Shown: positions 21,795 to 64,000 of the stretch, in pieces
Layout: the number at the start of each line of letters is the position of its first letter
Numbering within the stretch: the stretch's first letter is position 1
Assembly (NCBI GenBank): GCA_023627715.1
Contig: JAMAHW010000099.1
Coordinates: 1 to 64,000 of the forward strand
DNA: 64,000 bases
Direction of reading: 5' to 3'
Origin: Periconia sp. R9002
Lineage: Eukaryota; Ascomycota; Dothideomycetes; Pleosporales; Periconiaceae
Program-made: the position numbers and the translations under genes
Notes under the pieces: generated by a model
Told to the model about the DNA's origin: nothing
What the model saw: only the letters and a program-made list of their open reading frames with translations
The model's database searches: none

Positions 21795-24485
21795 TTAGTT
21801 GTCGGCGGAGTTGGGTCGGACGGGACCTTTAGTGTAGGCACGTTTGTGTGGGCGCCTGTGAGCAAGCCGAGGCCTGTTCTTGGGATTCCACCAGGAGTTA
21901 TCCGGGCTCGAATTCCAGTAAGGATTTGGCTTTGGGTTGAAGCCGTTTGCGGGAGGAGCCTGCGTTGGCCGAGACGGAGAAACTGTTTGAGATGCTTTCG
22001 ACGGCTGAGATGATTGCGAGGGTTGGGCAGCTGGAGTAGACTGGGCAGGAACAGTGGCTTGCGCAGGGGCAGAGCTAGCAGGAACTGTAGGTACTGCCGA
22101 AGATGATGCAGCTGCCACAGCCGATGAAGCAGTGCTGCCCTTGGTAGGTCGGGGGTTGGCAGCGCCTCCAGGGGTGGATGCAGAGGGGACTTTGCCGCCC
22201 TTGAGAGCCATGATGCGTTCCACGGCCTTCTCAGCAGCAATCATGACTATGGCCTGAGTGTTTCCTGTAGGGAGATCCGGGTGGAAGGATGCATCTACGA
22301 CAAACAAGTTATCAGTGCCGTAGACCTTCGTATCGGTGTCGACAACAACGCCAGCATCTCCCTTCTTTCCCATCTTTGCCGTGCCTACCCAGTGAGAGCC
22401 AGTGACGTGATCCTTGATCAGATCAGCAGCAGTGACGTTGCCGCCGGTTGAAGACTGAATGGAGAGACCGGAGCCGGGAGTGCGTGTCATCTTGAGAAGG
22501 CGATCCATGAAAGCAGTGATGGCTTCTTTGTCTTCGTCAGTTCGCAGCCATGGCTCGCTAGTGAGTTGAGTAGCGCCGTCGGCGGTGATTCCTAAGCTTC
22601 CGACGGAAGTGAGACCATGAGTAAGATAGACCTTCATCTGGACGGTGTTGTTGGCAGGTCCGTTGCAGGTACCCTGGATGAAGACTTCTTTACCTGCGGT
22701 GGTGTTGACGGAAGTCCAGAAACTGAGACGTTGACCAGACTGTGCGAGAAGACCATCGCCCTTGGCAAAGAGATCGACAGTGGTTTGATTTGGGGTAGTG
22801 AAGTCAGTAGTTGGAAGAGCGGGCAAAGTGCTGTTGGTGTTGAATTTGATGGTGAAGATGGTGTGGTCCTTGATTTCGGCGCCAACGGGAAGATCAATCC
22901 ATTCAGACTCAGCGGGCAACTTGACACCGCTCGTGCCAGAAGCCACGGTCTGGAGTTGCTTAGCAGGACCAATACCAGAGTTGAATAGCAGGCGGGGAGT
23001 AGACATGGCACCAGAGGCGAGGATAACGCTTCCACCGGCCTTCACGTTGTAGATGACACGCGCACCGGCCTCGGTCTCCATCTCAACACCGGAAATGGTT
23101 GAGCCATTGCGAACAGCGCGGATCACGTTTGTGTTCAGCATAAGCTTGAAGTTCTTCTGCTGCTTGGCGATAGGGAGGTAGGAGCGTACTGGACCGTTGC
23201 GAAGCCCATTAGCAAGATCCCATGGAGGGTAGCCGTAGACATCCTTTCGTGCATTGTGGTCGCCTTTGATGAAATCGGTCTGCTTCCAGCCCTGACCTTT
23301 GAAGAACTTGGAAAGAACATCGAATGCTGCATTGTTGTAGCGAACATTATCGCTGGAGCCATAGTTCTGTCCTGGATTGCGCTCGTACAATCGGTCAGCT
23401 GATTTGGCGACATCATTCCACTTCCAACCCGTTGGCCACTTATCATCGAAATCGCGAGCCTGAGGTTTGACAAACATGAGGGCATTGACCATGGTGCCAC
23501 CACCGAGGAGACATCCGGCCATGTCTGCGGTATCGGTGCAGTAGGCGGGCTTGCCGACCTGGCTAAGGTAGTAGGCGAATCCGGGAACTTCGTACATGGT
23601 TCTGGTGTTGTTCCAGGATAACGTATCCTTGTTACCAGTCTCTGCATAAGAGGGGCCTCCACGCTCGACCAAGAGGACAGAAGCACCGCTTTCCGCAAGA
23701 CGGCTGGCGGAGATGATACCTGCGGGACCCGCACCACAGATGATGTAGTCATAGGTTGCATTGGCAATGCTGGCTGTGAGGTTGGTAGGAGTTGTTCCGC
23801 TGCCGGGGGTACCAGAGATGGGTGCGGTGGAGTTCCCGCTGCCCGTGCCGTTGCCCGTACCGCTGGAAGCATCGCCAGTGGCAAGAGCGGCCCATTTGGC
23901 ATAATCGGCACTCTTCGCGCCGTCGAGGGGGAGTCCAAACGCTCCAAAACCAGCGCCGTGGTAGTTCAAAGCGCCACTGGCCGACGCAGGCGTCTTGAGA
24001 GCATCCGTAGAGAAAGCATAGCCCAAAACGTTGGTTGCGGTCTCCGAGAGAGTGAGCGCGCCCTCGCCGATACAATTTGAGCACAAGAAAGTGTAAGCGA
24101 ATGCCGTGTCGTTGACATATGTGCCGTCAGGGATGGTAGTCATCTTGAAATCACCCGTGACGACTCCTGGGTTTGTATAACCAGTGGCCTTCCTGAAGGA
24201 TGAGACGATTTTGTTCTCATGAGGCCATGCCACCACCATGAGCGAGTCGACCATACCGGAGCTCATGGTGAGAGCTCCGTAACCTCCATCGTTGGTGATT
24301 GGAACAACGAGCTGCCCAATGAAATCGGTGGTGGGTTTCTCGGGCACAGCAATACCCAGGGTAAAGCCAGAGTTTGTGACACCACTGAATTTGATACCAC
24401 TTTTGGCATCCGTGTACGGAGCTGCCTGCTGTGCAGCTGCTTGCAGCGCCAAGAAGGCGGAAGAAAGAAAAAACGATCGTGTCAT
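21795..24485 (-). CDS. cdh: Cellobiose dehydrogenase (AA8 cytochrome + AA3_1 flavodehydrogenase)
   Basis: Intronless, 896 residues. Signal peptide MTRSFFLSSAFLALQAAAQQA. The N-terminal haem b domain (about 20-190) has probable ligands Met78 (SSGMVDSL) and His176 (LNYHGAGFGAFG). A Gly/Ser/Thr linker at about 205-240 leads into the GMC dehydrogenase: FAD fold YDYIICGAGPAG (about 245-256), VERGG, then GGGTMVNALMF. Catalytic His/Asn are in GSHWVGTAKMG and LPTGNTQAIV. It oxidises cellobiose and related sugars and passes electrons through the haem to lytic polysaccharide monooxygenases (AA9); none is in this window. After a Ser/Ala/Pro linker there is no Cys-containing CBM1. Instead the protein ends in a Trp/Tyr/Asn-rich then basic segment (PYWNSSPDNSWWNPK, RRPHKR). 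Confidence 0.93.
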   Translation of the reverse strand: MTRSFFLSSAFLALQAAAQQAAPYTDAKSGIKFSGVTNSGFTLGIAVPEKPTTDFIGQLVVPITNDGGYGALTMSSGMVDSLMVVAWPHENKIVSSFRKATGYTNPGVVTGDFKMTTIPDGTYVNDTAFAYTFLCSNCIGEGALTLSETATNVLGYAFSTDALKTPASASGALNYHGAGFGAFGLPLDGAKSADYAKWAALATGDASSGTGNGTGSGNSTAPISGTPGSGTTPTNLTASIANATYDYIICGAGPAGIISASRLAESGASVLLVERGGPSYAETGNKDTLSWNNTRTMYEVPGFAYYLSQVGKPAYCTDTADMAGCLLGGGTMVNALMFVKPQARDFDDKWPTGWKWNDVAKSADRLYERNPGQNYGSSDNVRYNNAAFDVLSKFFKGQGWKQTDFIKGDHNARKDVYGYPPWDLANGLRNGPVRSYLPIAKQQKNFKLMLNTNVIRAVRNGSTISGVEMETEAGARVIYNVKAGGSVILASGAMSTPRLLFNSGIGPAKQLQTVASGTSGVKLPAESEWIDLPVGAEIKDHTIFTIKFNTNSTLPALPTTDFTTPNQTTVDLFAKGDGLLAQSGQRLSFWTSVNTTAGKEVFIQGTCNGPANNTVQMKVYLTHGLTSVGSLGITADGATQLTSEPWLRTDEDKEAITAFMDRLLKMTRTPGSGLSIQSSTGGNVTAADLIKDHVTGSHWVGTAKMGKKGDAGVVVDTDTKVYGTDNLFVVDASFHPDLPTGNTQAIVMIAAEKAVERIMALKGGKVPSASTPGGAANPRPTKGSTASSAVAAASSSAVPTVPASSAPAQATVPAQSTPAAQPSQSSQPSKASQTVSPSRPTQAPPANGFNPKPNPYWNSSPDNSWWNPKNRPRLAHRRPHKRAYTKGPVRPNSADN

Positions 24486-27748: not shown

Positions 27749-29590
27749 ATGCAGCGGCAGAACCCCCAAACCACCTGGGCCTCCTATTATCAGCCTTTAG
27801 ATCCCGCTAGTCACGAAATACGTATGCTAACTCTTCATGGGGGTACTTTGTCCGACGCTATAAGCTGTACCATGAGGAATGTCAGTTTGGAAGAGCCAAT
27901 AGGTCAATACCACGCGCTGTCGTACAGATGGGGAGACGAAACCGATCGCAAGCAAATCCTCGTGAATCAGAAACCGCTGAGCGTGACTGCGAATCTGTAT
28001 ACCGCTCTTCAACATCTCCGCTTCGTTGGTGAAGATCGCGACTTGTGGATTGATCAGATATGCATCAACCAAGGTGACATGGACGAGAAAATGCATCAGA
28101 TCAGCCTCATGAAACCGATTTATGCGGAATCGATACAGGTAATTATTTGGTTGGGGGAATCGGATAGGTACGTGGAGAGATTGGCGAATGTGCTGTCGGA
28201 TGAAGGCCTTTCTTCCAGCTTGACGAGGGCGTCAGAAGAGCTAGATGTTGAAGATGGGTTTAGCCGAAGGATCACGACTATCTATCACCTTATTCTCCAC
28301 ATGTGCCACAGGGAATGGTGGACGCGTGTATGGGTTGTACAGGAGTGTGTTACGTCGGTTAATCCTCCATTGTTCCAGTGTGGAGACTGTTCCTTCAACT
28401 TCACTCAGCTCGAAACCGCTTTCGAGGCATGCATGAACGAACCCAGTTATCTGACGTATTCGGGCGGAGACGACGCAGAACTACAGAGAGCCTTGGAAAC
28501 CTCGCAAACAGCATCGACGGACCTCCTCCGACCCCTCCAGAACATGCTTGACTTGCGTCTGATGCTAGCTTCCACGCCACAGAGAACCATATCGCTTATC
28601 GACTGCCTGCAACTCACCGTCTGTCGTTCGGCAACCAATGCGCATGACTACGTCTACGGATTTCTCGGCCTTATGCCGCCGGCAGAAAGCCAGGAGCTCA
28701 TCTTAGGCACTGCTAACCCAGCTCAACAACTTTTCCACAAGTTCATGGTGCTGGCGCTTCGGTCGGGGGTGGAGAGCGACGTACTTGGTTGCTATCAAGC
28801 GCTGCAAGTTCTTTCTTTCGAAAAAGAGGAATCTGAAGGTCCGTCATGGGTCCCTGATTTCACCGCGCAGAGCTTCAGCAACAGAAACAACAGCATGTAC
28901 CTCATTCCTACCGTTCCAGCAAAGACACGATTCACTCCAAGAATATGTTTCAAAAAGAATGATACAGCGATGAATATAGCGGGATACTACCTAGATACCG
29001 TCGCCCACACCCAATTTCTCACATCGGGGCAGGATGTGCTATCTAAAGCCATTGCAAAATGCCACAATCTAGCTATTCAACCCACACATTTCTCATACGA
29101 GGGTACCTTCAACAATCCAGAAGACAAAATCCGGTCTAGATTCAGATCACTCTTCACCTGCAACTTCCCATTACACTGTTCCACCAACCAGCCAGAGCTG
29201 CTCAACGACCTCTGGGATCTATGGATACACTCCGAAACAGAACACACGGCATCGTCCCAACAAAAACTCCAAAGCAAACAACAAGACCTAGGTATTGACA
29301 CTATCCAAACCGCATTCGATGAATTCCATGTGCGCTCAGTCGCTGCTTGCGAAGGGAGGTCCTGGTTCAAAACCACGAACGATTACTTTGGAATAGCAGT
29401 TCCGGGCATCCGTGTGGGGGACGTGGTGATGTTGCCACGCGGTTTCGTCATGCCTTTGATTCTGCGTCCGGGCGCTGGGGGTTATAAACTTGTAGGTGGT
29501 GCGTATGTTGATTGGTTGGTGGAGGACGGTGCGGTTGATGTGCTTGTGGATAGGGGCGAGATTGTAGAAACGGGTTGGGATATAGAATAG
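27749..29590 (+). CDS. HET-domain (heterokaryon incompatibility) protein
   Basis: Intronless, 613 residues. The HET domain spans about residues 50-225 with its three usual blocks: YHALSYRWGDETDRKQILVN, DLWIDQICINQGDMDEKMHQ and IYAESIQVIIWLGE, plus RVWVVQECV. The C-terminal 380 residues carry the conserved but uncharacterised fungal region (LTVCRSATNAHDYVYGFLGL, WVPDF, GVRVGDVV-type end). HET proteins trigger programmed cell death after non-self contact between hyphae, and the HET domain has a TIR-like fold. No NACHT or STAND domain is fused. There is no plausible partner gene adjacent. Start is the first in-frame ATG. Confidence 0.92.
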   Translation: MQRQNPQTTWASYYQPLDPASHEIRMLTLHGGTLSDAISCTMRNVSLEEPIGQYHALSYRWGDETDRKQILVNQKPLSVTANLYTALQHLRFVGEDRDLWIDQICINQGDMDEKMHQISLMKPIYAESIQVIIWLGESDRYVERLANVLSDEGLSSSLTRASEELDVEDGFSRRITTIYHLILHMCHREWWTRVWVVQECVTSVNPPLFQCGDCSFNFTQLETAFEACMNEPSYLTYSGGDDAELQRALETSQTASTDLLRPLQNMLDLRLMLASTPQRTISLIDCLQLTVCRSATNAHDYVYGFLGLMPPAESQELILGTANPAQQLFHKFMVLALRSGVESDVLGCYQALQVLSFEKEESEGPSWVPDFTAQSFSNRNNSMYLIPTVPAKTRFTPRICFKKNDTAMNIAGYYLDTVAHTQFLTSGQDVLSKAIAKCHNLAIQPTHFSYEGTFNNPEDKIRSRFRSLFTCNFPLHCSTNQPELLNDLWDLWIHSETEHTASSQQKLQSKQQDLGIDTIQTAFDEFHVRSVAACEGRSWFKTTNDYFGIAVPGIRVGDVVMLPRGFVMPLILRPGAGGYKLVGGAYVDWLVEDGAVDVLVDRGEIVETGWDIE

Positions 29591-48465: not shown

Positions 48466-49965
48466 ATGCCTCAGCCACGCAACAGACCAGACAGGTATCT
48501 CTTGGAAGATGTCCTTGCTGTTGCACGCGAGCATCCATTTTATAATCCCAACATCCGATTTCCTCCAACCCCAGAAGAGATTATATCCTTAACGGGCAAT
48601 TCTTCAGGTATGCCATCGAAGCTTGAACTGCAGTCATTCCCTGTCATTACCAAAGCTGGCTTGAACCCCATCATTCAACGGCTATGCGAAAGTAACGAGA
48701 GAGAAAACACTTTCAAACACGCGACCTACTTTAGTATGACCGGAGGCGGAAGTGGCGGGGGTATGGCTATGCCCTTCGTAACTGATTCCCGGGAGAACCG
48801 CACTCAAAGGCGAATATATGGCGAGCTGCTTAGCCAACTTCGAGTAGTGAAGAATGGGGATGTTACAATCTGTTTAAACAAATGTGGCTTCATCTATCGG
48901 TATGAAATCTCCCGATTTTGACCTAAGGCAATTTTAATGTTATGGTACAGACCTCTTGATCTCATGTGTGAGATTATTGAATATGCGGGCGGCTCTCCTT
49001 TGCCCGCAGGCAACGTCATGCCCCACGATAAAGTGGCAAAGGCTTGCAAAGCTTTTGTGCCAAACATTCTTGTCGGAGGTCCTGCCGAACTCATGCAATT
49101 TTCCAAAGACATTGCATCTGGAGCCTTACTAGACCGACCAAAAAATAGTAAACCCTCACAAAGTTCCGATCCCCGAGACGTCGTCTTCGACAAAATTATC
49201 TTCTCTTCGGAAAAATTGACTGCAACACAAGAAACATTCTTGAGCCATGTGTTTGCAAAGCCGGGAAAGCATCTAGAATTCTGCTCAATATATGGCAGCG
49301 CGGAGACGGGGCTCTGGGCGGCGAGCAATCCTGAGATTGTGCGCTCTCCCATCAAGGATTGTCGAGACTTCATTTTCGACACTCGCAATATGATTGTGGA
49401 ACTTCACTACGCAGATGGCCGCATCATACAGATGGACGACGCACTGGACTTCGAAGAAGCAGGAGTACCGGGACGCCTTATTGTAACGTCTCTTCAGAAG
49501 CTGCGCCACCCCCTAGTGCGCTACGATACAGGGGACAAGGGTTCAATTCACCGGCTTCCCACCTTGGCCTGCGATTTGCTCGGGGGTCATGTTCCCAGTT
49601 TACGCATATTGCGACTGCAAGGCCGCGACATGGAAAAGTCTTTCGAGTGGCAAGGCCACTATTATGACCTAAGTGAGACGCAGCAGGTTTTTGAGGATCC
49701 TCAACTGGGAGTCTTAAAATGGCAGATCGTTTTGGCAGAGCATGAAGAAAAGATCGGAACCCAGTCTCTTGAGGTTCGGGTCTTACTTGCCAGTGAAGGA
49801 GTAGACCAGACAAGCCTCATTCGTCGACTGAAGGACTTTTTTCACGTTCAGACGGAGTTAGAATACCTCTTCTGTGTGAATAGGGTCGATATCAATGCCT
49901 TCGAGAAGAGTGAGACTGGGGGGAAAGTGATAAAGGTTGTTGATCTCCGAAAGACAGATAGCTAA
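48466..49965 (+). CDS. PaaK-like (phenylacetate-CoA-ligase family) adenylate-forming enzyme
   Basis: Exons 48466-48899 and 48951-49965 (51-nt intron, phase 2) encode 482 residues. ANL-superfamily motifs in order: Gly/Ser-rich ATP loop TYFSMTGGGSGGGMAMPF (about 87-104), SIYGSAETGLWA, and RYDTGDKG (Asp that holds ribose). The C-terminal lid domain is short, as in phenylacetate-CoA ligases. These enzymes activate aryl or amino acids as adenylates and then usually form a thioester. Some PaaK homologues in natural-product pathways act without CoA. No carrier-protein domain is fused and no NRPS is nearby, so the acyl acceptor is unknown; the ATP-grasp-like enzyme in the same cluster may act on the same intermediate. 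Confidence 0.85.
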
Positions 49966-50648: not shown

Positions 50649-52358
50649 ATGACCTCTCCCTTTGCAGCACCATCAGACCGGCTCTCGACCTTCTTCGACC
50701 ACTCACAGCCTCGCGCGGCTGCCTTCGAAGATGCAGAAATCGATGAGATAGCCAAACTTTTAGAGCATTGCGGACATATTGGGAGTAAATACCCTCGAAC
50801 ATACATCGTCCTACGCAATATTGGAGAGCTTGACTCCCTCGAACGGCTGCTTGATGAGGGGTTTACTGATCAATGGTTTCCCGTCGAGCTTCGAGGCCTG
50901 CCGAACTTTTTAAGGCCAACGATCAAGTCGAAAATCGTCCAAACACAGAACATTATCCTTACAAAGACTCTTGACTTGGAAAATGGAAAGCATAGGCACT
51001 TCGCTCCCGGGGAAGTCTTGCCTTTTGATATACTCGGGCGGCTTGGTAGTGGTGGGTATGGACAGGTGGACAAGATCGTGAGCAAAACAAGTTTTCGCCA
51101 ATATGCTCTGAAACGAATAAGGAGGCGCGCAGTATTTGGAAACGATTCCAAAGAAGGGATGAGGAGGTTCAAAAGCGAAATCCAGATCGTCAAGAGCCTT
51201 CAACACCGGCACATGATTCAGTACATTGGGTCGTATACGGACAAAACCTACGTAGGGTTAGTTATGGCCCCGGTGGCTGACCTCGATTTGGCCGCATTCA
51301 TGGCAAAAATTTGCGCGTGCATCCAATCTGTTTCAACGGATAGTTCTAAATCCTCGGTTCTCCAATCGCGCACTCAGGCTCTTGCAGCTGAATTATGTTC
51401 TACCCTGCGAACGTTTTTTGGTTGTCTGGCAGCTGGGCTTGCGTATCTCCATGATAGACCCATTCGGCATTAGGACATCAAACCGCAGAATATACTTGTC
51501 CACCAAGGGAGTCCTTTTTTGACCGATTTTGGCCTTTCCAGGGACTTTGCGGATGACGTCGGCAGTACTACGTCTGGATTGACACCAGCTTTTCCGCGAT
51601 ACAGCCCTCCAGAGATAGCTATATATGAGGCTCGAAACACATCGGCCGATATCTGGTCTCTTGGTTGTGTGTATTTTGAAATGGCTGCCGCACTTCATGG
51701 CCATACTGTTGAATGGATAAAACAATATTTTCAGGCCCATCATACCCAGTCCTCTCATTTCTACGCCAATCCGGAAGCTAGCTCGCAACTTCTTAATGAG
51801 TGGGAGCTAGCCTGGACGTCTCAAGACCGACAACCATTGAGATGGGTCAGAGATATGTGCCGGGTTGAGCGGCATTCTAGGCCAACTGCTGCACGGATCG
51901 TAGAGCTTATCACCTCCCCGAACGAGCCGGACGTGAGCGCAACTACCTTTTGTGGCATATGTTGTGTGTTTGAGGATGAGACAGATTCCTGTGACAGTCT
52001 GGTTGATGAGCCAACCATAGTCCCGGTTGAGACCCAACATTCGACCCATTCTTCGGATATTTCCCAGACAGTGAGCAGTGCTTTCGAGAGTCATATTGTG
52101 CACCAGGGGCCTGGGCTAACCGACTCTTCCTCAACCCCTTCGGCAAGTTTAACAACGGTACTAAGTGTAGAGGACCATGGAAATGCTGACGTTACGAGCA
52201 TCCTGGGACCACAGGGTCAGCCGCCCGTAGGCACAATGCCCCCCAGCCCTCTGCCTCGCAACCAGTCTCTGGATCCTCGCCACGCCGGTAAACACCAACG
52301 AACAAAATCCTTTCCTTCATGGTCTCCAAGACATCAGCGTCCCCGCCGTTGTAGCTAG
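50649..52358 (+). CDS. Ser/Thr protein kinase with in-frame TAG in the catalytic loop (pseudogene or recoded)
   Basis: One frame of 570 codons, interrupted only by TAG at 51471-51473. Before it: Gly-rich loop GRLGSGGYGQV (about 130-140), ATP-binding Lys155 (YALKRI) and alpha-C Glu177 (KSEIQIV). The stop falls between His and Asp of PIRH-stop-DIKPQNIL, the position of Arg in the HRD motif. After it: DFG (LTDFGLSRD), substrate loop YSPPE, and DIWSLGCVYFEM, then about 190 residues of Ser/Thr-rich tail. All other kinase residues are intact and the 3' frame has no further lesion. One A-to-T change from AAG explains the stop. Options: recent nonsense allele, stop readthrough, or A-to-I mRNA editing of UAG to UGG (Trp), known in some ascomycetes during sexual development. 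No frame-preserving intron removes the stop. Confidence 0.8.
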
Positions 52359-53640
52359 CTTTCTCCCGCTTTTTTTCAACGTCGTGATTGCGGTGTGCAC
52401 AGAGGTAGTTGGGTACGTGCATGCAACGGCGCTGCGATGGGCTCTGGTACAGGAAGGCCGATTGGTGTGGAACTCGAATCTGCGGCTATTTACTTGTTCG
52501 CGGCGCTCTTGGGCGAATGGCTTGGTGTTGAATGGTCTGGCAGCCGTGTTGCTGGTTGTTTGTTATACGGCAAGTGGGCAGTTAGTGCCGTTGGGCTGGA
52601 GTGGCGATTCCGTTAGAATGCCAGAAACTGGGTCTTTGGTGGTCAACGGTGTTGCAATGCTCATGCTTAGCTTTGGACTATTGGGCTTGTGCTGTATAGC
52701 GGCGCTCTGCCTGTTATTTGGTCGAAAGTCTATCCTGACCTGGAGCCCGAATCCACTGAATGCTGCGCTGGCTTGTAGGCACGCTGGAAAATTTACCCAT
52801 CGGCCCGGGCGTGGATTGATGGGTGTTGACGTTATATCTCAGCCGGCTCAACCTACAGTTGCGGTCTCCAAACAAGCTCCCGTCCGCAAGGTATACGAAG
52901 CAACTCGCACGGTGGTCAAGATTCTATGGTTCGCCCTCTTTCTCAATTGCCTTCTCGCCGGGCTAGTGTGCTACTTCACGTTCAAATTAACCGAAGGAGA
53001 TGCTTATCTCAGTTTCAACCTGTGGGGGATTCATGACTATGATGTCACATGGAGTAAGATTGGCAGAAGCAGCTGGTCCGCATTTTTGCAGCTTTTTTGC
53101 GCATTTCTCATCAACCTCGCGCTGCAGAGCATTGTGACAATGACGCTACATTGCGTGGAACTGATCGTTAATGTGGTTCGTGATGAAGCGGTTTGGCGAC
53201 AAGCAAGCACCTTCCGAGGTACCAGTATAGAATCATCAGCTCTTGGAAGCGCCCTGAAAAGTTGGCAGTGGTGGATCCTCTTTGCCACCAAACCCGTTGT
53301 TCAGTGGCTCTTTGGATCAGCAGGCGTCTCTTTCCACATCCGGAATGCTGTGGAGATTCAGTTCAATGCTGCCCCATTGTTTCTCTTGATAGGCATCACT
53401 TTCGGTCTTGTAGTCTTCTGCGAATATATGATCAGAAGTCAAGTCAAGGGTCCACAACCGGCCGCATTTGGGCATCTACAGACACTGGTAGACCTGATCG
53501 ACGAGTGGCAAGCGGACGAGCAGGGCCGTTTGTTCTGGGGTTGCAAAAAACCGTGCGATACAGACTCTTCAGGTCGTGTTGGGACGAGCAGCGACAGAAC
53601 AACAATTGGGCCTGTAGAGATTGGTGGTGTATATTTATAG
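52324..53640 (+). CDS. Multi-TM fungal membrane protein, 5' end missing or spliced
   Basis: The frame is open from 52231 to the TAG at 53638, but has no ATG until about codon 100. Convincing coding starts near 52324-52336 with DISVPAVVASFLPLFFNVV, then GYVHATALRWALVQEGRL and SNLRLFTCSRRSWANG. These are recurrent in a fungal family of large multi-TM proteins of unknown function. About five further TM segments follow, including VLNGLAAVLLVVCYTAS, GVAMLMLSFGLLGLCCIAAL, ILWFALFLNCLLAGLVCYF and APLFLLIGITFGLVVFC. The 5' end overlaps the kinase 3' end in another frame. A kinase-frame donor GTAAAC at 52288 with acceptor TTGTAG ending at 52354 would join the two into one kinase-membrane protein. Otherwise the gene is 5'-truncated. 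Confidence 0.55.
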   Translation, partial: LQDISVPAVVASFLPLFFNVVIAVCTEVVGYVHATALRWALVQEGRLVWNSNLRLFTCSRRSWANGLVLNGLAAVLLVVCYTASGQLVPLGWSGDSVRMPETGSLVVNGVAMLMLSFGLLGLCCIAALCLLFGRKSILTWSPNPLNAALACRHAGKFTHRPGRGLMGVDVISQPAQPTVAVSKQAPVRKVYEATRTVVKILWFALFLNCLLAGLVCYFTFKLTEGDAYLSFNLWGIHDYDVTWSKIGRSSWSAFLQLFCAFLINLALQSIVTMTLHCVELIVNVVRDEAVWRQASTFRGTSIESSALGSALKSWQWWILFATKPVVQWLFGSAGVSFHIRNAVEIQFNAAPLFLLIGITFGLVVFCEYMIRSQVKGPQPAAFGHLQTLVDLIDEWQADEQGRLFWGCKKPCDTDSSGRVGTSSDRTTIGPVEIGGVYL

Positions 53641-57341: not shown

Positions 57342-58304
57342 CCTAGATGGCTTTTACTCCAGCCTCACAGAAACCTAAGGCGTGATTATAAGAGCGAACG
57401 AAGAATTTAAAAAACTGCTCTGGGAAGAATCAGGCTCGTTCCTTATTGAATTGTCTGGCGGCCCAATTTCTAAGGATATGCATATTGGGTGCAAAAACGA
57501 GAGCCTTGGCAGCCTGATGGCTCGCATGAGCGATTTTGGCGCTACCCAATGAGTTTATCACAGGGAACACAGTCGCCGTTCCTTCATGGCTAGCGTAGGC
57601 GAAGAATCGGCGATCTTCGCAATGTTCGCGCACAAAGACCCTTATAACATCCATAGTTTTATGGTGAGGTTAGATACTATGAACAATACCGGAGTACTAC
57701 CTAAGCTATCTAGAACCTTAATGTTATCGTACGTAGTGTTGCGGCAGTGCATTCTGTCCTCTCATGAACTTAAAGACTATGATGTTTCACCGCTATAGGT
57801 GGCTAGAAGGCCTAGTGAATCCATTAAGTTGATTGGATGATCAAAATTACTGCTGCCTGCAACACCATCAATGTACGCTTAGGGAAAACGAAGGTAAACA
57901 TTGAAGAAGGAAGTTTTCATCTCGAACATTGCGGGCACGATTACCCCAGCATCCGTACACACGATGGCGTAATAGAACCTCGCAAATATTAAGGTGAAGC
58001 CTGCTTCGATGGTCGGCGAAGCTTCAAGACTATACTTGATCCGGCGATTCATGTCGACCCCGGAGCCTGACGGCAGCTGGGCTGAAGGTAGGCTACAGCA
58101 GACACGTATGACCAGCGCGGGGCAGACAGTCCTTCGAGCTGATTGCCTCACGCTCAAGCGTTCTCTAGGCTTCTTGGCTTTATGAGCGTCTCCCGCTCTG
58201 TAGACCGCCGTTCTGCGTAGCTTGTCTTTGGATACTGTATTCCAACCTACTCACTCAGATGAGGAGTTCTTCGGCACGTTTTCCTCACGATCGATCGAGA
58301 CAAG
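57342..58304. other. Divergent promoter region, AAA ATPase (-) / ankyrin protein (+)
   Basis: Short frames at 57430-57654 (-, 74 codons with ATG, ordinary composition) and 57586-57798 (+) overlap each other and have no recognisable motif. No other feature seen. Confidence 0.45.
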
Positions 58305-61300
58305 ATGTTATTGACTCTAGGAGCAGCGCTAAGTATTGCGCTTTTTCTCATAACTGAAGCAGCCGCAAGTCTGGGCGACTTCTCCAATGATTTAGCTACG
58401 GACCTGGGACCCGTGGTTCAATTATTTGGAGAACCAATCACCCGACAATACCTCAGCGAGGCTACTAGCTTTCTCGATTATTTCATTTTTGCCATGGCCC
58501 CTATTGGAATCATAACGGCCGTTGTTTCTGTCATTCGAGTTTGTGGCGATTCTTCTCTTAGGGCCTTTGTCGGCCGAGCACAGGAAGGAGATGGCCAAAT
58601 AGAAGCAGAGCTCTGTACGTCGACTAGCCGTGACGTATGCGAGCTTTTCAACAAAGGTGGAATTACCCGAGTGCTTGGTCGGCCTAAGATTCTGGAGATA
58701 ATACACATCCCGCCAAACTCTGAAAACAAGGAAGGCGAATCAAGGGCAGTCGAAGACGTCAAGGACAGCGAGGGCACCATGAATATATTTCTCTTTCGTA
58801 ATCTCTTACAAGACCTCCCGGAAAATGGAGAGTGGGTAAAACCCAAGCCAAGCCATCTATCTGCCCTGTTTCGCTGGGCTCAAAAACATTATTATTTCCC
58901 ATATCTGGGTCGTATTAATAAAGAGGGTGGTGCGACCAGTGATTCCCTTACCCAAGACGATGTCAGCAGTGAATTTGCACCTAACCCGAACTTATCACTC
59001 AACGTTGGCATCGTGAAACTACCTCGTGGTATCTTCTACGCTGTTGCTCTCCTCGGCATTATTCTCCAAGTCGGGGTCATTGTAATGGCTAGTCTGGTTT
59101 CCTGGAAGTATGGGTGGACCAAGGAGGACGACACGGAAGCTTCGAAAACAACGCAGAATGTTCCATTAAAGACTGCTGCTAAAGAAAACTCCGCACTGAT
59201 CGCGTTTATATGTGGGTCGGTCCTAATGTGTTCGGGCATGTTTATGTGTGCTGCTCTAATCGGACAGAGTACACGAGAATACACTTACGAACGGCGCCAA
59301 AAGTCCAGTCCAAGCTCACGACTTTTCTGGTTACAGCCTGGAAATCAGGTCGTCGGAGACGAGACATTTGACGCATTTGCCTACGTGGAGGAGAAGGACA
59401 AGGAAAAAGATACATACTTGACGGAGTATACTTCTTCTCGAACGGACAAAAACGATAAAGCTGTGTTCTACACATGGATCGCGATTATCATCACACTTGG
59501 AGGTTATGTCTCTCAATTCATCGGACTGCGGGGTATGAGCGCCTATATTTCGATCGCTCAATTGGGATCTTCCCTGCTGATGAGCTTCTTGCGTGGGTGT
59601 CTGAGAATGCAACGTCTCAAGAAGGACGCGAATAAACTTGGTGGTGTCCCGGATAAAATACTTGGTCATGAGCTTGACTGGCTGGCATATGCTATCAACG
59701 ACTATGATCCGAGCCCAGACGATCATCAACAAAGCCAGCTTAAAGGTGCAGACTGGCTCTGGCATCCCACTGGCGCGGCACTATATACGGAGGCCGTGCT
59801 CGTACGGAACTCCATACCAAGCAAGCTGTTTCGATATCGATCTCGGCTTGCAGACCTGACTGGTCATCAAAATCATGACGCCAAGGTCGATACTCAGCTC
59901 TACCAGATATGGGACGACCAGCAGGTTCCAGTACGGAACATGGCCATCCAATTACAAATTGCAATAGAAAGAACCGCTAGTATTTTCGCCGCGAAGGCCG
60001 CTTCGAATTTGCAAGATCGAATAGAGCTGAAAATTCCGGTCACAATGGCCGATACGCAGACTTCCAGGTTCCGCGTCGGACATATCGATATCACGCTAGA
60101 ACGAAGTTCATCCGATCCTGAGGGCATATTGTGGAAAATGAATTCTGCAAACATTGAGGCTATCCTTGGACTCTGGTTGTGGTCTCTGAAAAAGGGCAAA
60201 CATCTAGAGATGGATAACGAATACCACAACAAAGTATCAATTGCGGAAAGAATCCCGAATTTTCGAATTATTGGCCTGGGGACAGACTATCGGCGCGAGG
60301 AATTGGGAATGTGGTTGGGAGATTCTCTTCGAATACCATCGCGATATATGATCTTAAAAGGACAGCTACCTCGTGACCTCCACAGCGCGACTCTGTGGCA
60401 AGCAGAGAACATTGAGAAACGGGAGACTTTCGTGCCAGTACATGCTAATTCAACCTCTCCAGGCAGCATCATGAGCAGGCCAACGAGGCGGATTTTTGGG
60501 TGGACTGCTTTGAACGCCTCGGAAAGTTTAACGGATGTGGAGGGATTTCGTTTTGCGCCTGAAATACAGATTCAATATGCCCTGACTAGCCTACCCCTAC
60601 TGCAGCAATGCGGACATGAACTGTTCACCTTATTTGTGGAGCTCTTACGCGAACACTTCAATCCTGAATTCGGCGAGATCGATATTGTTGAACAAGATGG
60701 CCGGCTCCGATGGCAGAATGCTCAGATATCAAGCGTGGTATCGGCTTTCGAAACTGCGGGATTAGGATTAGCGGATGATGCATTGACATGTTTGATTCCA
60801 ACATTATACCGAGACCTGCAACCACAGAGTGGAGAGCTTTTAATACAGCCTCTCATGGCACTGGCAGCAAGATACCGTAGGAGGAATGACTGGGAAGGGG
60901 CCGAAAAATTTCTTCGATGGGGTTGCGCTCACTATCATAAGCGGTGTAACGATGCGATACCCCCTCAAACTACAGAATTCGAGAGCTTCAAGAGTTTGCT
61001 TATCGTGACCGGAGAGTTCTATCGGTGGGCCATTGCCCAAAACGACATAGACAGAAGAGAGTTTGGGTATCACGGAATCGGATGGATGCTAGACAGTCTG
61101 AAAATACAGAATATAGCATTCCATGCCGCTGCGGAGGCCAGTAGTATTTTGAACAGGTATAAAGAGGTTGCCTGTCGAATAGCCGAAAAGCACAATGTAA
61201 TTCGGACCTTATCCTATTTTCGAAATTATCAAATGTATCCGGATTTGAATGAGAAGTTTCTAGGGAGAGAAACAGACTCCTTCGGCGAGCCGTACATTGC

Positions 61301-64000
61301 GAGACAGGAGGCAGAACAGAAGGTCGGCGAAGACGCTGCCCGAACCCGAATGCTCTTCTTGTTGAGCACATGGGACTTCCAGAGAACAGACCACCTTCTC
61401 TCACCAAACGTAACCCGAGCAGCTCGCATGGGTTGGATTGAGGTTGTTGGTGCTTTAGTAGAGCTGAAAGCAAATCTGAATTATCAGGACTCAGATGGCA
61501 GGACTGCAATACATTACGCAGCCATGATCGGAAAGTTTACAATCGCAAAGGCATTGCTTGCCTATGGCAGCGAGCCAGACCTTCCTGACAAAAACGGAAG
61601 AACTCCGCTCTTTTTGGCAGCGCAAGCTGATCATCGGGATATTGTGACGTTATTAGGTCGGCGAGCTTCACTACTGACTGCGGACTGCGATGGCTTCACA
61701 CCCCTCATAGTCGCATGCAGAGATGGGAATGTGAAAATGGTCAAACAACTTATTTCGATAGGGTCTCTGCATTGTGTCAACTACGAAGATAAGCTAGGGT
61801 GGACTGCCATTTGGCATGCCGCAAGGGGCAGCCACGAGGAAATCGTGAAGATACTTTTAGAGTATGACAACACTAAAACTGATGGATATGACAAGGATGG
61901 GATCTCCTTGCTTGCCATTTCGGCGCAGAGTCGTAATGAAAATATTATCCAGTCCGTCATGCTCAGATCATGGCGAGATTTCGACCCGAACACCAAGATC
62001 CTACTTCCTTCACGATGGCAATGCACCATGCTCTGTATCGCGATAGAGAGTAATCATCAACACATTTTCGAGATCCTTCTGAAAGACAAGAGGCTGAAGC
62101 TGGATTGGGAACAAATTCTTACGCCCGGCGCTTCGACTGAACCAGCTAGACATGAATACGATGACGATGAACTTCCGGTAACTGCCCTGGGTTTAGCAAT
62201 TCGATATAACCGTGAACATATGTTCAACGCACTCCTGGCCGACAGAAGACTGCATATCAGTGATCTTGCTGAGTTCCCTCTTGTGGTTGCCGCTCGCCAT
62301 GGCCGTATTTCCATGATTGAAAGACTTCTTCCCGCTTTGGGGGTAGACCCAAATAAAGGCGCGCCACTAGCACTCGCCGCATCGAAAGGCAACACCGAGG
62401 CCGTAAGAATTCTCCTGCGAGACGATAGGGTCAATGTTACTGAAGGCCAACCACTCTTGAAATCCATCTGTTTTGGTAGAGAAGAGGTCGTCAAAGTTCT
62501 ACTCCGTGCGCCCAAAATTACAGTAGACCAAGTTCATATTGAAGAAGCTATTCGATCATACCAATTTGGAATCGCTGGTCTGCTTTTGCAGCACGTAAAG
62601 AAGCCGAACATGAGGTTCACCCGTTTTCATGCTGGAACCGCTCTTCATATTGCTGCTATTTACGGACAACCAGATTTTGCAAAAGCAATTTTGGCACTTG
62701 GAAACACGGATCCGAATCTTGTTGATGACGAAGGGCAAACCCCTCTATCGAGGGCGTTTTCCACAAACTCAATGGAGGTTGCCACGGCGTTGCTAGGAGA
62801 CACGCGAACGACTCTGCATCATAACAACATCTGCGGCTGTACCTGGTCACCCTATGAAAGCCTTAAAGATTCTTCACACGGAACAATTCTCCATTTTGCC
62901 CTGACGCTGAAACCCCCTATCATGGAACAAGCCCTGAGAATGTTACTCGAAAATCCCCGGTTGAACCCCAACATGGTGGATCAGGAGGGGAAAACACCGT
63001 TAGCATTTCTATTGGAGCATGATGAGATCCGTCACGACATTTCAAATGCGCTCCAACTCCTTTTGGATGCTCCAAACCAGAAGATTTCGACCGATGTGGT
63101 AGCACCTAACGGACAGACGCCTTTGCATCTGGCGGCGAAGTCTGGGCGTGTGATTGAGAGCCTTCTAAACCTTGCAGGTACAAATCCAAATACACAGGAT
63201 GCATTTGGACAGACCCCCCTTCACATTGCAGCTCAGCATGGAGCGCACAATGCTATCAAAGCTTTGTTGAATTGCCCCAATATAAACCCTGAAATCTTGG
63301 ATTCAAATCGGAAAACTGCGTTCGAACTAGTTGATATCAATATTTATCCAAAAGCTGCTATCTCGTTTCTGGTTAAGGGTCGGGGTGACTATGGAGTGAC
63401 GCAGCGCGGGACTACAGCTCTCCACATCATCGTCAACGAGTGGAATTCTGACATGAAAGGGCTCCTGGAACTCCTTCTGGACACTGCAAAAGTTGATCCG
63501 AACCTGCAGAACATTCACGGACAGACTGCCCTTCATATTGCCGTTGCTGGTGGACATGGCGAAGCTCTTGAAATGCTCCTATCGAACCGTATTATTGACC
63601 CAAACGCACATGATTCATCGAATCAAACACCTCTACATCTTCTAGCAGCTTCACGGAAGCTCATGGCAAAGGACGCAGGATTGCTAGGTATGTTCTTTGC
63701 TAATCGGAAACTAGAACCGAACTGCCGCGACGGGTCCAGAAATACGGCACTACATGTGCATCTAAATCTCCCAGGAGCCTTTGATGAAGTTACAAAAAAA
63801 TTCAGCCAAATGTTCTTGGATGACTCACGCACAGACCCAAATGTGCAGGACTCAAAGGATCGGACGGCTCTCCATTTGGCGGCGACTCGAGGCTTTGATA
63901 TGTCTTCATCATTCAAAGATTCAAAATCTGCTCTTTCAACAGCGCAGATTATTGCATCATTTCTTAGGGACAAGAGATGTGACACGAATCTGAAAGACAT
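58305..64000 (+). CDS. Giant multi-TM ankyrin-repeat protein, 3' end outside window
   Basis: A single uninterrupted frame from ATG 58305 to the window edge, at least 1,898 codons, with no intron. N-terminal signal or TM segment MLLTLGAALSIALFLITEAA, then TM segments at about 57-79 (YFIFAMAPIGIITAVVSVI), 242-265 (VALLGIILQVGVIVMASLV), 297-320 (LIAFICGSVLMCSGMFMCAA) and 386-433 (two). The family-like start GDFSNDLATDLGPVVQLFGEP is shared by fungal ankyrin proteins of unknown role. A helical middle (about 450-1035) precedes many ankyrin repeats from about 1035 onward (DGRTAIHYAA, GRTPLFLAAQ, NGQTPLHLAAKSG, GQTPLHIAAQHG, GQTALHIAVAGG, TALHLAATRG). The repeats keep loop spacing DPN/NPN between units. 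Ankyrin repeats bind partner proteins; the TM block suggests a membrane scaffold or sensor. It looks intact as far as visible. Confidence 0.88.
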   Translation, partial: MLLTLGAALSIALFLITEAAASLGDFSNDLATDLGPVVQLFGEPITRQYLSEATSFLDYFIFAMAPIGIITAVVSVIRVCGDSSLRAFVGRAQEGDGQIEAELCTSTSRDVCELFNKGGITRVLGRPKILEIIHIPPNSENKEGESRAVEDVKDSEGTMNIFLFRNLLQDLPENGEWVKPKPSHLSALFRWAQKHYYFPYLGRINKEGGATSDSLTQDDVSSEFAPNPNLSLNVGIVKLPRGIFYAVALLGIILQVGVIVMASLVSWKYGWTKEDDTEASKTTQNVPLKTAAKENSALIAFICGSVLMCSGMFMCAALIGQSTREYTYERRQKSSPSSRLFWLQPGNQVVGDETFDAFAYVEEKDKEKDTYLTEYTSSRTDKNDKAVFYTWIAIIITLGGYVSQFIGLRGMSAYISIAQLGSSLLMSFLRGCLRMQRLKKDANKLGGVPDKILGHELDWLAYAINDYDPSPDDHQQSQLKGADWLWHPTGAALYTEAVLVRNSIPSKLFRYRSRLADLTGHQNHDAKVDTQLYQIWDDQQVPVRNMAIQLQIAIERTASIFAAKAASNLQDRIELKIPVTMADTQTSRFRVGHIDITLERSSSDPEGILWKMNSANIEAILGLWLWSLKKGKHLEMDNEYHNKVSIAERIPNFRIIGLGTDYRREELGMWLGDSLRIPSRYMILKGQLPRDLHSATLWQAENIEKRETFVPVHANSTSPGSIMSRPTRRIFGWTALNASESLTDVEGFRFAPEIQIQYALTSLPLLQQCGHELFTLFVELLREHFNPEFGEIDIVEQDGRLRWQNAQISSVVSAFETAGLGLADDALTCLIPTLYRDLQPQSGELLIQPLMALAARYRRRNDWEGAEKFLRWGCAHYHKRCNDAIPPQTTEFESFKSLLIVTGEFYRWAIAQNDIDRREFGYHGIGWMLDSLKIQNIAFHAAAEASSILNRYKEVACRIAEKHNVIRTLSYFRNYQMYPDLNEKFLGRETDSFGEPYIARQEAEQKVGEDAARTRMLFLLSTWDFQRTDHLLSPNVTRAARMGWIEVVGALVELKANLNYQDSDGRTAIHYAAMIGKFTIAKALLAYGSEPDLPDKNGRTPLFLAAQADHRDIVTLLGRRASLLTADCDGFTPLIVACRDGNVKMVKQLISIGSLHCVNYEDKLGWTAIWHAARGSHEEIVKILLEYDNTKTDGYDKDGISLLAISAQSRNENIIQSVMLRSWRDFDPNTKILLPSRWQCTMLCIAIESNHQHIFEILLKDKRLKLDWEQILTPGASTEPARHEYDDDELPVTALGLAIRYNREHMFNALLADRRLHISDLAEFPLVVAARHGRISMIERLLPALGVDPNKGAPLALAASKGNTEAVRILLRDDRVNVTEGQPLLKSICFGREEVVKVLLRAPKITVDQVHIEEAIRSYQFGIAGLLLQHVKKPNMRFTRFHAGTALHIAAIYGQPDFAKAILALGNTDPNLVDDEGQTPLSRAFSTNSMEVATALLGDTRTTLHHNNICGCTWSPYESLKDSSHGTILHFALTLKPPIMEQALRMLLENPRLNPNMVDQEGKTPLAFLLEHDEIRHDISNALQLLLDAPNQKISTDVVAPNGQTPLHLAAKSGRVIESLLNLAGTNPNTQDAFGQTPLHIAAQHGAHNAIKALLNCPNINPEILDSNRKTAFELVDINIYPKAAISFLVKGRGDYGVTQRGTTALHIIVNEWNSDMKGLLELLLDTAKVDPNLQNIHGQTALHIAVAGGHGEALEMLLSNRIIDPNAHDSSNQTPLHLLAASRKLMAKDAGLLGMFFANRKLEPNCRDGSRNTALHVHLNLPGAFDEVTKKFSQMFLDDSRTDPNVQDSKDRTALHLAATRGFDMSSSFKDSKSALSTAQIIASFLRDKRCDTNLKD

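What the first reader, a model, noticed from the sequence alone, without database searches (positions are those of the whole stretch)
51462..51490. In-frame TAG exactly at the HRD arginine position of an otherwise intact kinase
Seen: the reading frame gives PIRH, TAG, DIKPQNIL. Gly loop, VAIK-type Lys, alpha-C Glu, DFG and the APE-like loop are all intact and the frame continues 295 codons past the stop without another lesion. Known: Sordariomycetes such as Fusarium graminearum edit adenosines to inosine during sexual development with preference for UAG, and the kinase PUK1 needs editing of stop codons in its kinase domain. Here U precedes and G follows the A, the favoured context, and editing would give Trp. 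Inference: this kinase is a candidate stage-specific, editing-dependent gene; otherwise it is a very young pseudogene.
Basis: partly seen in the sequence, partly recalled or inferred. Interest (0 to 1): 0.85.

Follow-up and report, generated by a model that had tools for sequence, protein, structure and literature searches.

The report
Kinase gene with a recent stop
A fungal protein-kinase gene carries one premature stop codon in its catalytic loop; the evidence fits a recent ordinary loss of function better than rescue by RNA editing, because the fungus is not of the group known to edit and relatives have lysine or arginine, not tryptophan, at that position.

Summary
A single in-frame TAG (51471-51473) interrupts an otherwise open, intronless-looking kinase ORF (50649-52358, +) inside the HxD motif; 294 sense codons follow.

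The editing reading is not supported. (1) The genome looks Pleosporalean (Dothideomycetes), not Sordariomycete: a window gene is 91% identical to Periconia macrospinosa. (2) In 118 of the 120 listed homologues the position is Lys 78, Arg 38, Ser 1, Gly 1, never Trp, which editing would give; the 23 best-ranked all have Lys. (3) The cited U-A-G context is true of every UAG. (4) The A lies in a predicted hairpin loop in only 1 of 7 folding windows, a weak one. (5) Lone stops sampled elsewhere in this genome show no significant TAG excess (7 of 11, p 0.10).

Conserved residues are kept on both sides of the stop and the branch is not accelerated, so the lesion is young or the frame is still used. 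Best explanation: a recent nonsense allele (young pseudogene); an assembly error is next. No RNA, raw reads or strain data were available, so editing is unlikely but not excluded.

The parts
50649..51470 (+). 5' part of the kinase ORF: N-terminal region, N-lobe and up to the His of HxD (274 codons)
   Evidence: (Pkinase 54.8 bits)
51471..51473 (+). in-frame TAG at the second position of HxD (Lys/Arg column)
51474..52355 (+). 3' part of the same frame: catalytic loop DIKPQN, DFG, SPPE, C-lobe and a conserved post-kinase CGICC...DSCDSLVDEPT stretch (294 codons)
   Evidence: (Pkinase 57.5 bits)
52356..52358 (+). terminator (TAG) of the frame

Best explanation
The gene is a member of a fungal Ser/Thr-kinase subfamily, best represented in Pleosporales, that in this strain or species has recently acquired a nonsense mutation in the catalytic-loop lysine codon. 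Most likely one single-nucleotide transversion turned a Lys codon into TAG. Translation should end after 274 residues, leaving an N-terminal region and N-lobe without catalytic loop, DFG or C-lobe, so no active kinase is made. Shown: the stop, the intact flanking frame, Lys in the 23 best-ranked relatives, no acceleration, no convincing intron. Inferred: the exact ancestral codon, loss of function, and absence of recoding at the RNA level.
For: The stop is the only lesion of the frame. The column is K 78, R 38, S 1, G 1 in 118 aligned homologues (of 120 listed, of 1198 found), and K in the 23 best-ranked. Of 57 positions invariant in those 23 (42 before and 15 after the stop; the 15 is low partly because one relative, P0023, is gapped there) the window gene departs at 2, both 5' of the stop; left-one-out relatives depart at 0-5 of 57-62. 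LG+G4 trees: terminal branch 0.225 for the whole, 0.234 for the 5' kinase part, 0.293 for the 3' part; root-to-tip rank 24 of 29, 19 of 29 and 20 of 28, so no acceleration. The post-kinase CGICC (or CGVCC) motif, present in 23 of the 23, persists 3' of the stop. Under a simple neutral model with an assumed 0.1 indel per substitution, the chance of no second lesion falls to about 0.10 at 1% and 0.01 at 2% neutral divergence. The gene looks dispensable: no listed database hit exceeds 70% identity, although a gene about 26 kb away in the window is 91% identical to P. macrospinosa; paralogue C165 appears frameshifted; several relatives have short gene models ending at other places. RIP indices of the CDS are not RIP-like (composite -0.62 against -0.53 for the whole window).
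Against: No other strain, raw read or transcript was available, so fixation, sequencing accuracy and RNA-level recoding are untested. The intactness of the 3' part is also what a recoded, functional gene would show. The 3' part is slightly more diverged than the 5' part (67-70% against 73-75% identity to the four best-ranked relatives; branch 0.293 against 0.234), which may be the domain's own rate. No DNA of close relatives could be fetched, so dN/dS was not computed. The short models of relatives may be contig ends or gene-prediction errors, and the apparent absence of a Periconia orthologue may be a gap in the data.
Confidence: 0.8

Rival explanations
1. A single-base sequencing or assembly error: the genome really has a sense codon and an intact kinase.
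For: Everything else in the gene is intact and constrained; the genome is a 267-contig draft; the C165 paralogue's apparent frameshift lies in a homopolymer-rich stretch, also possible as an error.
Against: No positive evidence; a substitution error outside a homopolymer is uncommon in a consensus (recalled).
Confidence: 0.09
2. Stage-specific A-to-I mRNA editing turns UAG into UGG (Trp) and gives a full-length kinase during sexual development, as for PUK1 in Fusarium.
For: A lone TAG in an intact frame; the A is unpaired (0.91-0.98) in 5 of 7 folding windows, and in the shortest window lies in a 15-nt hairpin loop on a weak 3-bp stem (-0.4 kcal/mol). Ame1-family (DUF726) genes exist in this genome (3 loci). 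Lone TAGs are the commonest lone stop in my sample (7 of 11). Editing outside Sordariomycetes and some Pezizomycetes is stated as undetermined (PMC11156358).
Against: Pleosporales, not Sordariomycetes. Trp in 0 of 118 homologues. In 6 of 7 windows the A is in no hairpin loop, but exterior, in an interior loop or paired. Ame1 orthologues are widely distributed in ascomycetes and the ability to interact with Tad3 is reported to have evolved in Sordariomycetes (PMC11087585, passages), so DUF726 presence proves little. The TAG share among lone stops is not significant (p 0.10).
Confidence: 0.04
3. The 274-residue product is itself functional, as a truncated pseudokinase made of the N-terminal region and N-lobe.
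For: The N-terminal region and N-lobe are conserved, and some relatives have short gene models.
Against: The 3' part is nearly as well conserved as the 5' part, which a long-standing truncated function would not predict; the short models that were aligned end at different places.
Confidence: 0.04
4. Translational readthrough of the TAG gives some full-length kinase.
For: One isolated stop in an intact frame.
Against: The following sequence GAC does not resemble the leaky context UGA-CUA (recalled); no stop seen at this site in relatives.
Confidence: 0.02
5. The TAG lies in a small intron.
For: 54 of 156 tested GT/GC..AG pairs of 40-200 nt keep the frame open; a laxer motif scan finds one candidate with a branch-point-like motif, 99 nt starting GTATCT.
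Against: None of the printed GT pairs has a GTRNG donor, and all remove conserved residues of the catalytic region (at least YLHDRPIRH) that align without a gap to homologues. GC pairs were counted but not printed.
Confidence: 0.01

Closest known systems
PUK1 (Perithecium unique kinase 1) of Fusarium graminearum and orthologue NCU03242 of Neurospora crassa
   Same: In-frame UAG inside the kinase domain of an otherwise intact kinase gene.
   Different: PUK1 has tandem TAGTAG in the ninth kinase subdomain, is expressed almost only in perithecia with about 90% of transcripts edited at both sites, and the first site is a UAG in Neurospora too (PMC4817773, passages). Here one TAG at HxD, in a Pleosporalean fungus, at a Lys/Arg column where 0 of 118 homologues has Trp, and no relative was seen to share the stop.
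Ordinary young nonsense pseudogenes in expanded fungal gene families (general knowledge)
   Same: One point lesion, intact remainder, an apparently dispensable member of a family, other members with different lesions.
   Different: Nothing found that sets it apart.
Fungal HKD kinase subfamily (P0002-P0024; named members from Byssothecium circinans, Pyrenochaeta, Bimuria, Lojkania, Paraphoma)
   Same: 53-75% identity over each kinase half, a shared N-terminal region, and the post-kinase CGICC/CGVCC motif.
   Different: The 23 relatives have Lys at the stop position and are 613-966 aa long; the window frame would be 569 aa even if the stop were not there.

Membership tests
PUK1-like genes with editing-corrected premature stops | UAG in frame within an otherwise intact coding region | tested here: met
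PUK1-like genes with editing-corrected premature stops | host lineage with shown A-to-I mRNA editing (Sordariomycetes, Pyronema) | tested here: not met
   Pleosporales by best relatives; editing range from PMC11156358, (other classes undetermined)
PUK1-like genes with editing-corrected premature stops | Trp (from UGG) accepted at the site in homologues | tested here: not met
   0 of 118 aligned homologues
PUK1-like genes with editing-corrected premature stops | stop conserved at the same site in related species | tested here: not met
   0 of 118 homologues lacks a residue there; none of the 8 short models aligned, of 25 hits, ends at the site. No sister strain or close species was available
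PUK1-like genes with editing-corrected premature stops | edited A in a hairpin loop of the predicted mRNA (a preference, not absolute) | tested here: inconclusive
   unpaired 0.91-0.98 in 5 of 7 windows, 0.63 in one, 0.19 in one; in a hairpin loop in 1 of 7 only (31-nt window, weak stem)
PUK1-like genes with editing-corrected premature stops | A-to-G in sexual-stage RNA but not in DNA | not testable with these tools
   no RNA reads available
protein kinase (Pkinase, PF00069) | significant match over the domain with catalytic motifs | tested here: met
   but the product as encoded ends before the catalytic Asp
young nonsense pseudogene | single inactivating lesion, no clear relaxation of constraint yet | tested here: met
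young nonsense pseudogene | no functional full-length product | not testable with these tools
   needs RNA or protein data
RIP-mutated gene | RIP dinucleotide signature and C-to-T/G-to-A type stops | tested here: not met
   composite index -0.62 for the CDS; a Lys codon to TAG is not a C-to-T or G-to-A change (ancestral codon inferred); a relic in the same genome scores +1.23

The most novel reading that the evidence does not exclude
The stop is recoded at the RNA level in this Pleosporalean fungus (A-to-I editing or programmed readthrough). By editing it would be, as far as I know, the first PUK1-like switch outside Sordariomycetes and Pezizomycetes, and would place an unusual Trp in HxD, making an HWD kinase.
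Probability: 0.05. Interest if true: 0.8.

Novelty: new member of a known kind. Interest (0 to 1): 0.15.

Why it matters
As it stands it looks like an ordinary recent gene loss in a kinase family. It is a useful caution: a UAG inside an intact kinase is not evidence of editing unless the lineage edits, homologues accept Trp at the site and the stop is shared by relatives. If RNA data from ascomata did show recoding here, it would extend fungal mRNA editing to Dothideomycetes, a range the 2024 review leaves undetermined (PMC11156358).

Tried and rejected
Intron over the stop: 156 GT/GC..AG pairs tested, 54 keep the frame; the printed GT pairs have no GTRNG donor and all delete conserved catalytic residues (one weak candidate in the laxer scan); rejected.

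RIP as the cause: indices and mutation type do not fit; rejected.

Ame1 as a test for editing: 3 DUF726 loci found, but the paper says orthologues are widely distributed in ascomycetes; not diagnostic. The Ame1 residues tied to Tad3 binding were not compared, because no Ame1 sequence was at hand.

Lone-stop census in this genome: 720 family matches by the headers (136 kinase, 9 MFS, 98 p450, 152 HET, 147 Fungal_trans, 92 NPHP3_N, 65 APH, 21 FAD_binding_3). The HET list was cut, and for several families only part of the candidates was scored (MFS 9 of 552, FAD_binding_3 19 of 125, for example), so this is a sample. Of the listed matches with stops I read 23 of 25 kinase (the window included), 9 of 9 HET, 7 of 12 p450, 14 of 28 Fungal_trans, 6 of 9 NPHP3_N, 6 of 6 APH, 0 of 1 MFS and 0 of 2 FAD_binding_3. 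Intron versus lone stop was judged by eye, helped by a motif scan. Counted as lone: TAG 7 (window kinase; kinase C74; HET C211, C196, C179; APH C33:60953, C1), TGA 2 (HET C61 twice), TAA 2 (NPHP3_N C58; APH C12). HET C179 has two motif-scan intron candidates but was counted as lone, because the domain runs through without an insertion. Left out as ambiguous: HET C22 TGA, HET C21 TAG, Fungal_trans C34 TAG, Fungal_trans C70 TAA, APH C49 TAA, APH C33:258074 TAG, p450 C11 TGA, NPHP3_N C52 TGA. Matches with two or more lesions were not counted as lone. Against the 74/184 share of TAG among one-step nonsense neighbours of the kinase's codons: 7 of 11, p 0.10; without the window kinase, which was the starting point, 6 of 10, p 0.17; with all ambiguous ones 10 of 19, p 0.19. 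C52 was first counted as lone (7 of 12, p 0.16) and moved to ambiguous. TAG is thus somewhat more frequent than expected, not significantly. In HET genes stops at what look like conserved Trp positions (motif recalled) occur as both TAG and TGA.

dN/dS was not possible: no DNA of close relatives in the collections on hand, and the two closest paralogues are 42-48% identical over their longer matches. No structure prediction was run, since it would not bear on the question.

Paper searches: 'A-to-I' + 'RNA editing' + 'Dothideomycetes' gave 1 paper, about Fusarium; 'PUK1' + 'A-to-I' + 'Fusarium graminearum' 14; 'AME1' + 'A-to-I' + 'Sordariomycetes' 3; 'RNA editing' + 'Periconia' 0; 'A-to-I' + 'sexual' + 'Pleosporales' 0. 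Most subscription papers are not in that library. PMC11156358 was read in parts 1 and 2 of 3; PMC4817773, PMC11087585 and PMC7306014 as passages only; the others only as search listings with the start of the abstract.

Full report
Observation. The window holds a kinase frame, with no intron apparent, from ATG 50649 to TAG 52356-52358 on the + strand, interrupted once, by TAG at 51471-51473. The stop falls between the His and the Asp of the HxD catalytic motif. 274 codons precede and 294 follow. Gly loop, ALK lysine, alpha-C Glu, DFG and SPPE are present, and each half matches Pfam Pkinase alone. The two other forward frames hold 11-18 stops per half, so the open frame is not chance.

Organism. 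The window lies in a 42.9 Mb genome of 267 contigs. A cellobiose dehydrogenase at 21798-24485 (-) is 91% identical over its whole length to that of Periconia macrospinosa; the next row, unnamed, is at 73%, and the next named one, Byssothecium circinans, at 65%. Periconia is Pleosporales, Dothideomycetes. The named relatives among the first 30 kinase hits (Byssothecium, Pyrenochaeta, Bimuria, Lojkania, Paraphoma, Dothidotthia) are Pleosporales (their order recalled); further down come other Dothideomycetes, lichens and an Aspergillus. The premise of a Sordariomycete therefore fails. The species itself was not identified.

The site in relatives. Of 1198 homologues found, 120 were listed and 118 of these aligned over the domain: the column is Lys 78, Arg 38, Ser 1, Gly 1. 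A regular-expression count over the 121 proteins then on disk, the window's own included, gave 78, 37, 1 and 1, with 3 not matching. The 23 best-ranked all have Lys. None has Trp, the residue that UAG-to-UGG editing would give. A Lys codon is one substitution from TAG; that substitution is a transversion and not a RIP-type change.

Age of the lesion. Of 57 positions invariant in the 23 best-ranked relatives the window gene departs at 2, both 5' of the stop; only 15 of the 57 lie 3' of it, partly because one relative is gapped there. Terminal branches are 0.234 (5' kinase part) and 0.293 (3' part), and root-to-tip ranks are 24 of 29 (whole), 19 of 29 and 20 of 28. Identity to the four best-ranked relatives is 73-75% before and 67-70% after the stop, a small difference that may be the domain's own rate. 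The conserved post-kinase CGICC motif persists beyond the stop. With an assumed indel rate of 0.1 per substitution, a neutral frame of this length would rarely escape a second lesion beyond 1-2% divergence. So the stop is young, or the frame is still translated.

Dispensability. No listed hit exceeds 70% identity to the kinase, although a gene about 26 kb away has a 91% Periconia hit: either P. macrospinosa lacks the gene or it is not in the data. A search with the 5' piece alone, meant to catch short models that share the stop, gave 25 hits. Eight were aligned; none ends at the site, and several end elsewhere, some with tails that no longer align. In this genome paralogue C126 is intact with HKD over the kinase domain, while C165 changes frame near the APE segment. 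Motif-level intron candidates exist there (from 28775, 68-103 nt) but would remove the conserved segment that is open in the next frame, so a frameshift or an assembly error is likelier. The family seems to lose members independently, though draft gene models may exaggerate this.

Editing. Fungal A-to-I editing is reported from Sordariomycetes and Pyronema, was not identified in Aspergillus nidulans or Botrytis cinerea, and is undetermined in other classes (PMC11156358). It prefers U at -1 and hairpin loops. The U at -1 and G at +1 are given by any UAG, so they carry no weight. In local folds the A was unpaired (0.91-0.98) in 5 of 7 windows, 0.63 in one and 0.19 in one; it lay in a hairpin loop only in the shortest window, a 15-nt loop on a 3-bp stem of -0.4 kcal/mol. 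Across 1425 UAGs of both strands of the window the median unpaired probability is 0.76. DUF726 (Ame1-family) genes are present (3 loci), but such genes are widely distributed and the Tad3 interaction is reported to have evolved in Sordariomycetes (PMC11087585, passages). A sample of lone stops in other gene families of this genome gave TAG 7, TGA 2, TAA 2: more TAG than the 40% expected, but not significantly (p 0.10; 0.17 without the window gene; 0.19 with the ambiguous cases). One of the seven is a second kinase, C74:75981-76781, with TAG where 97 of 116 homologues that matched the motif have Leu.

Other mechanisms. No convincing intron covers the stop. RIP seems to have acted in this genome, as a relic with 14 stops and composite index +1.23 shows, but not on this gene (-0.62).

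Conclusion. The best-supported account is a recent nonsense allele of a dispensable kinase, with an assembly error as the next possibility and RNA recoding as a low-probability alternative that only reads could settle.

Noticed in passing
G000:C74:75981-76781 (L039): A second kinase of this genome with one in-frame TAG and no intron candidate in the motif scan, at a column where 97 of 116 motif-matching homologues have Leu.
   Followed up: partly
G000:C165, about 28740-28780 (L034): A close paralogue of the window kinase changes frame in a homopolymer-rich stretch near the APE segment: a frameshift, an assembly error or, less likely, an intron.
   Followed up: partly
G000:C100:814-1299 (L095): NPHP3_N relic with 7 TAG and 7 TAA in frame, GC 0.37 and RIP composite +1.23 over the fetched 1.3 kb: RIP seems to have acted in this genome.
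   Followed up: partly
G000:C211:698-1153, C196:6258-6701, C61:108893-109351, C61:237159-237650 (L061, L062, L066, L067): HET-domain genes with a lone stop at what look like conserved Trp positions, two TAG and two TGA (the Trp motif is recalled).
   Followed up: partly
window 48466-49965 (+): Upstream neighbour whose in-frame TGA (48919-48921) lies in what looks like a typical 51-nt intron (48900-48950, by eye), so not a lesion; no Pfam match for either piece.
   Followed up: partly
window 52231-53637 (+): Hydrophobic-looking ORF overlapping the kinase 3' end in another frame, no Pfam match; its start is unclear.
   Followed up: no
window 58263-63998 (+): A 1912-codon ankyrin-repeat ORF that is still open at the window edge.
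   Followed up: no
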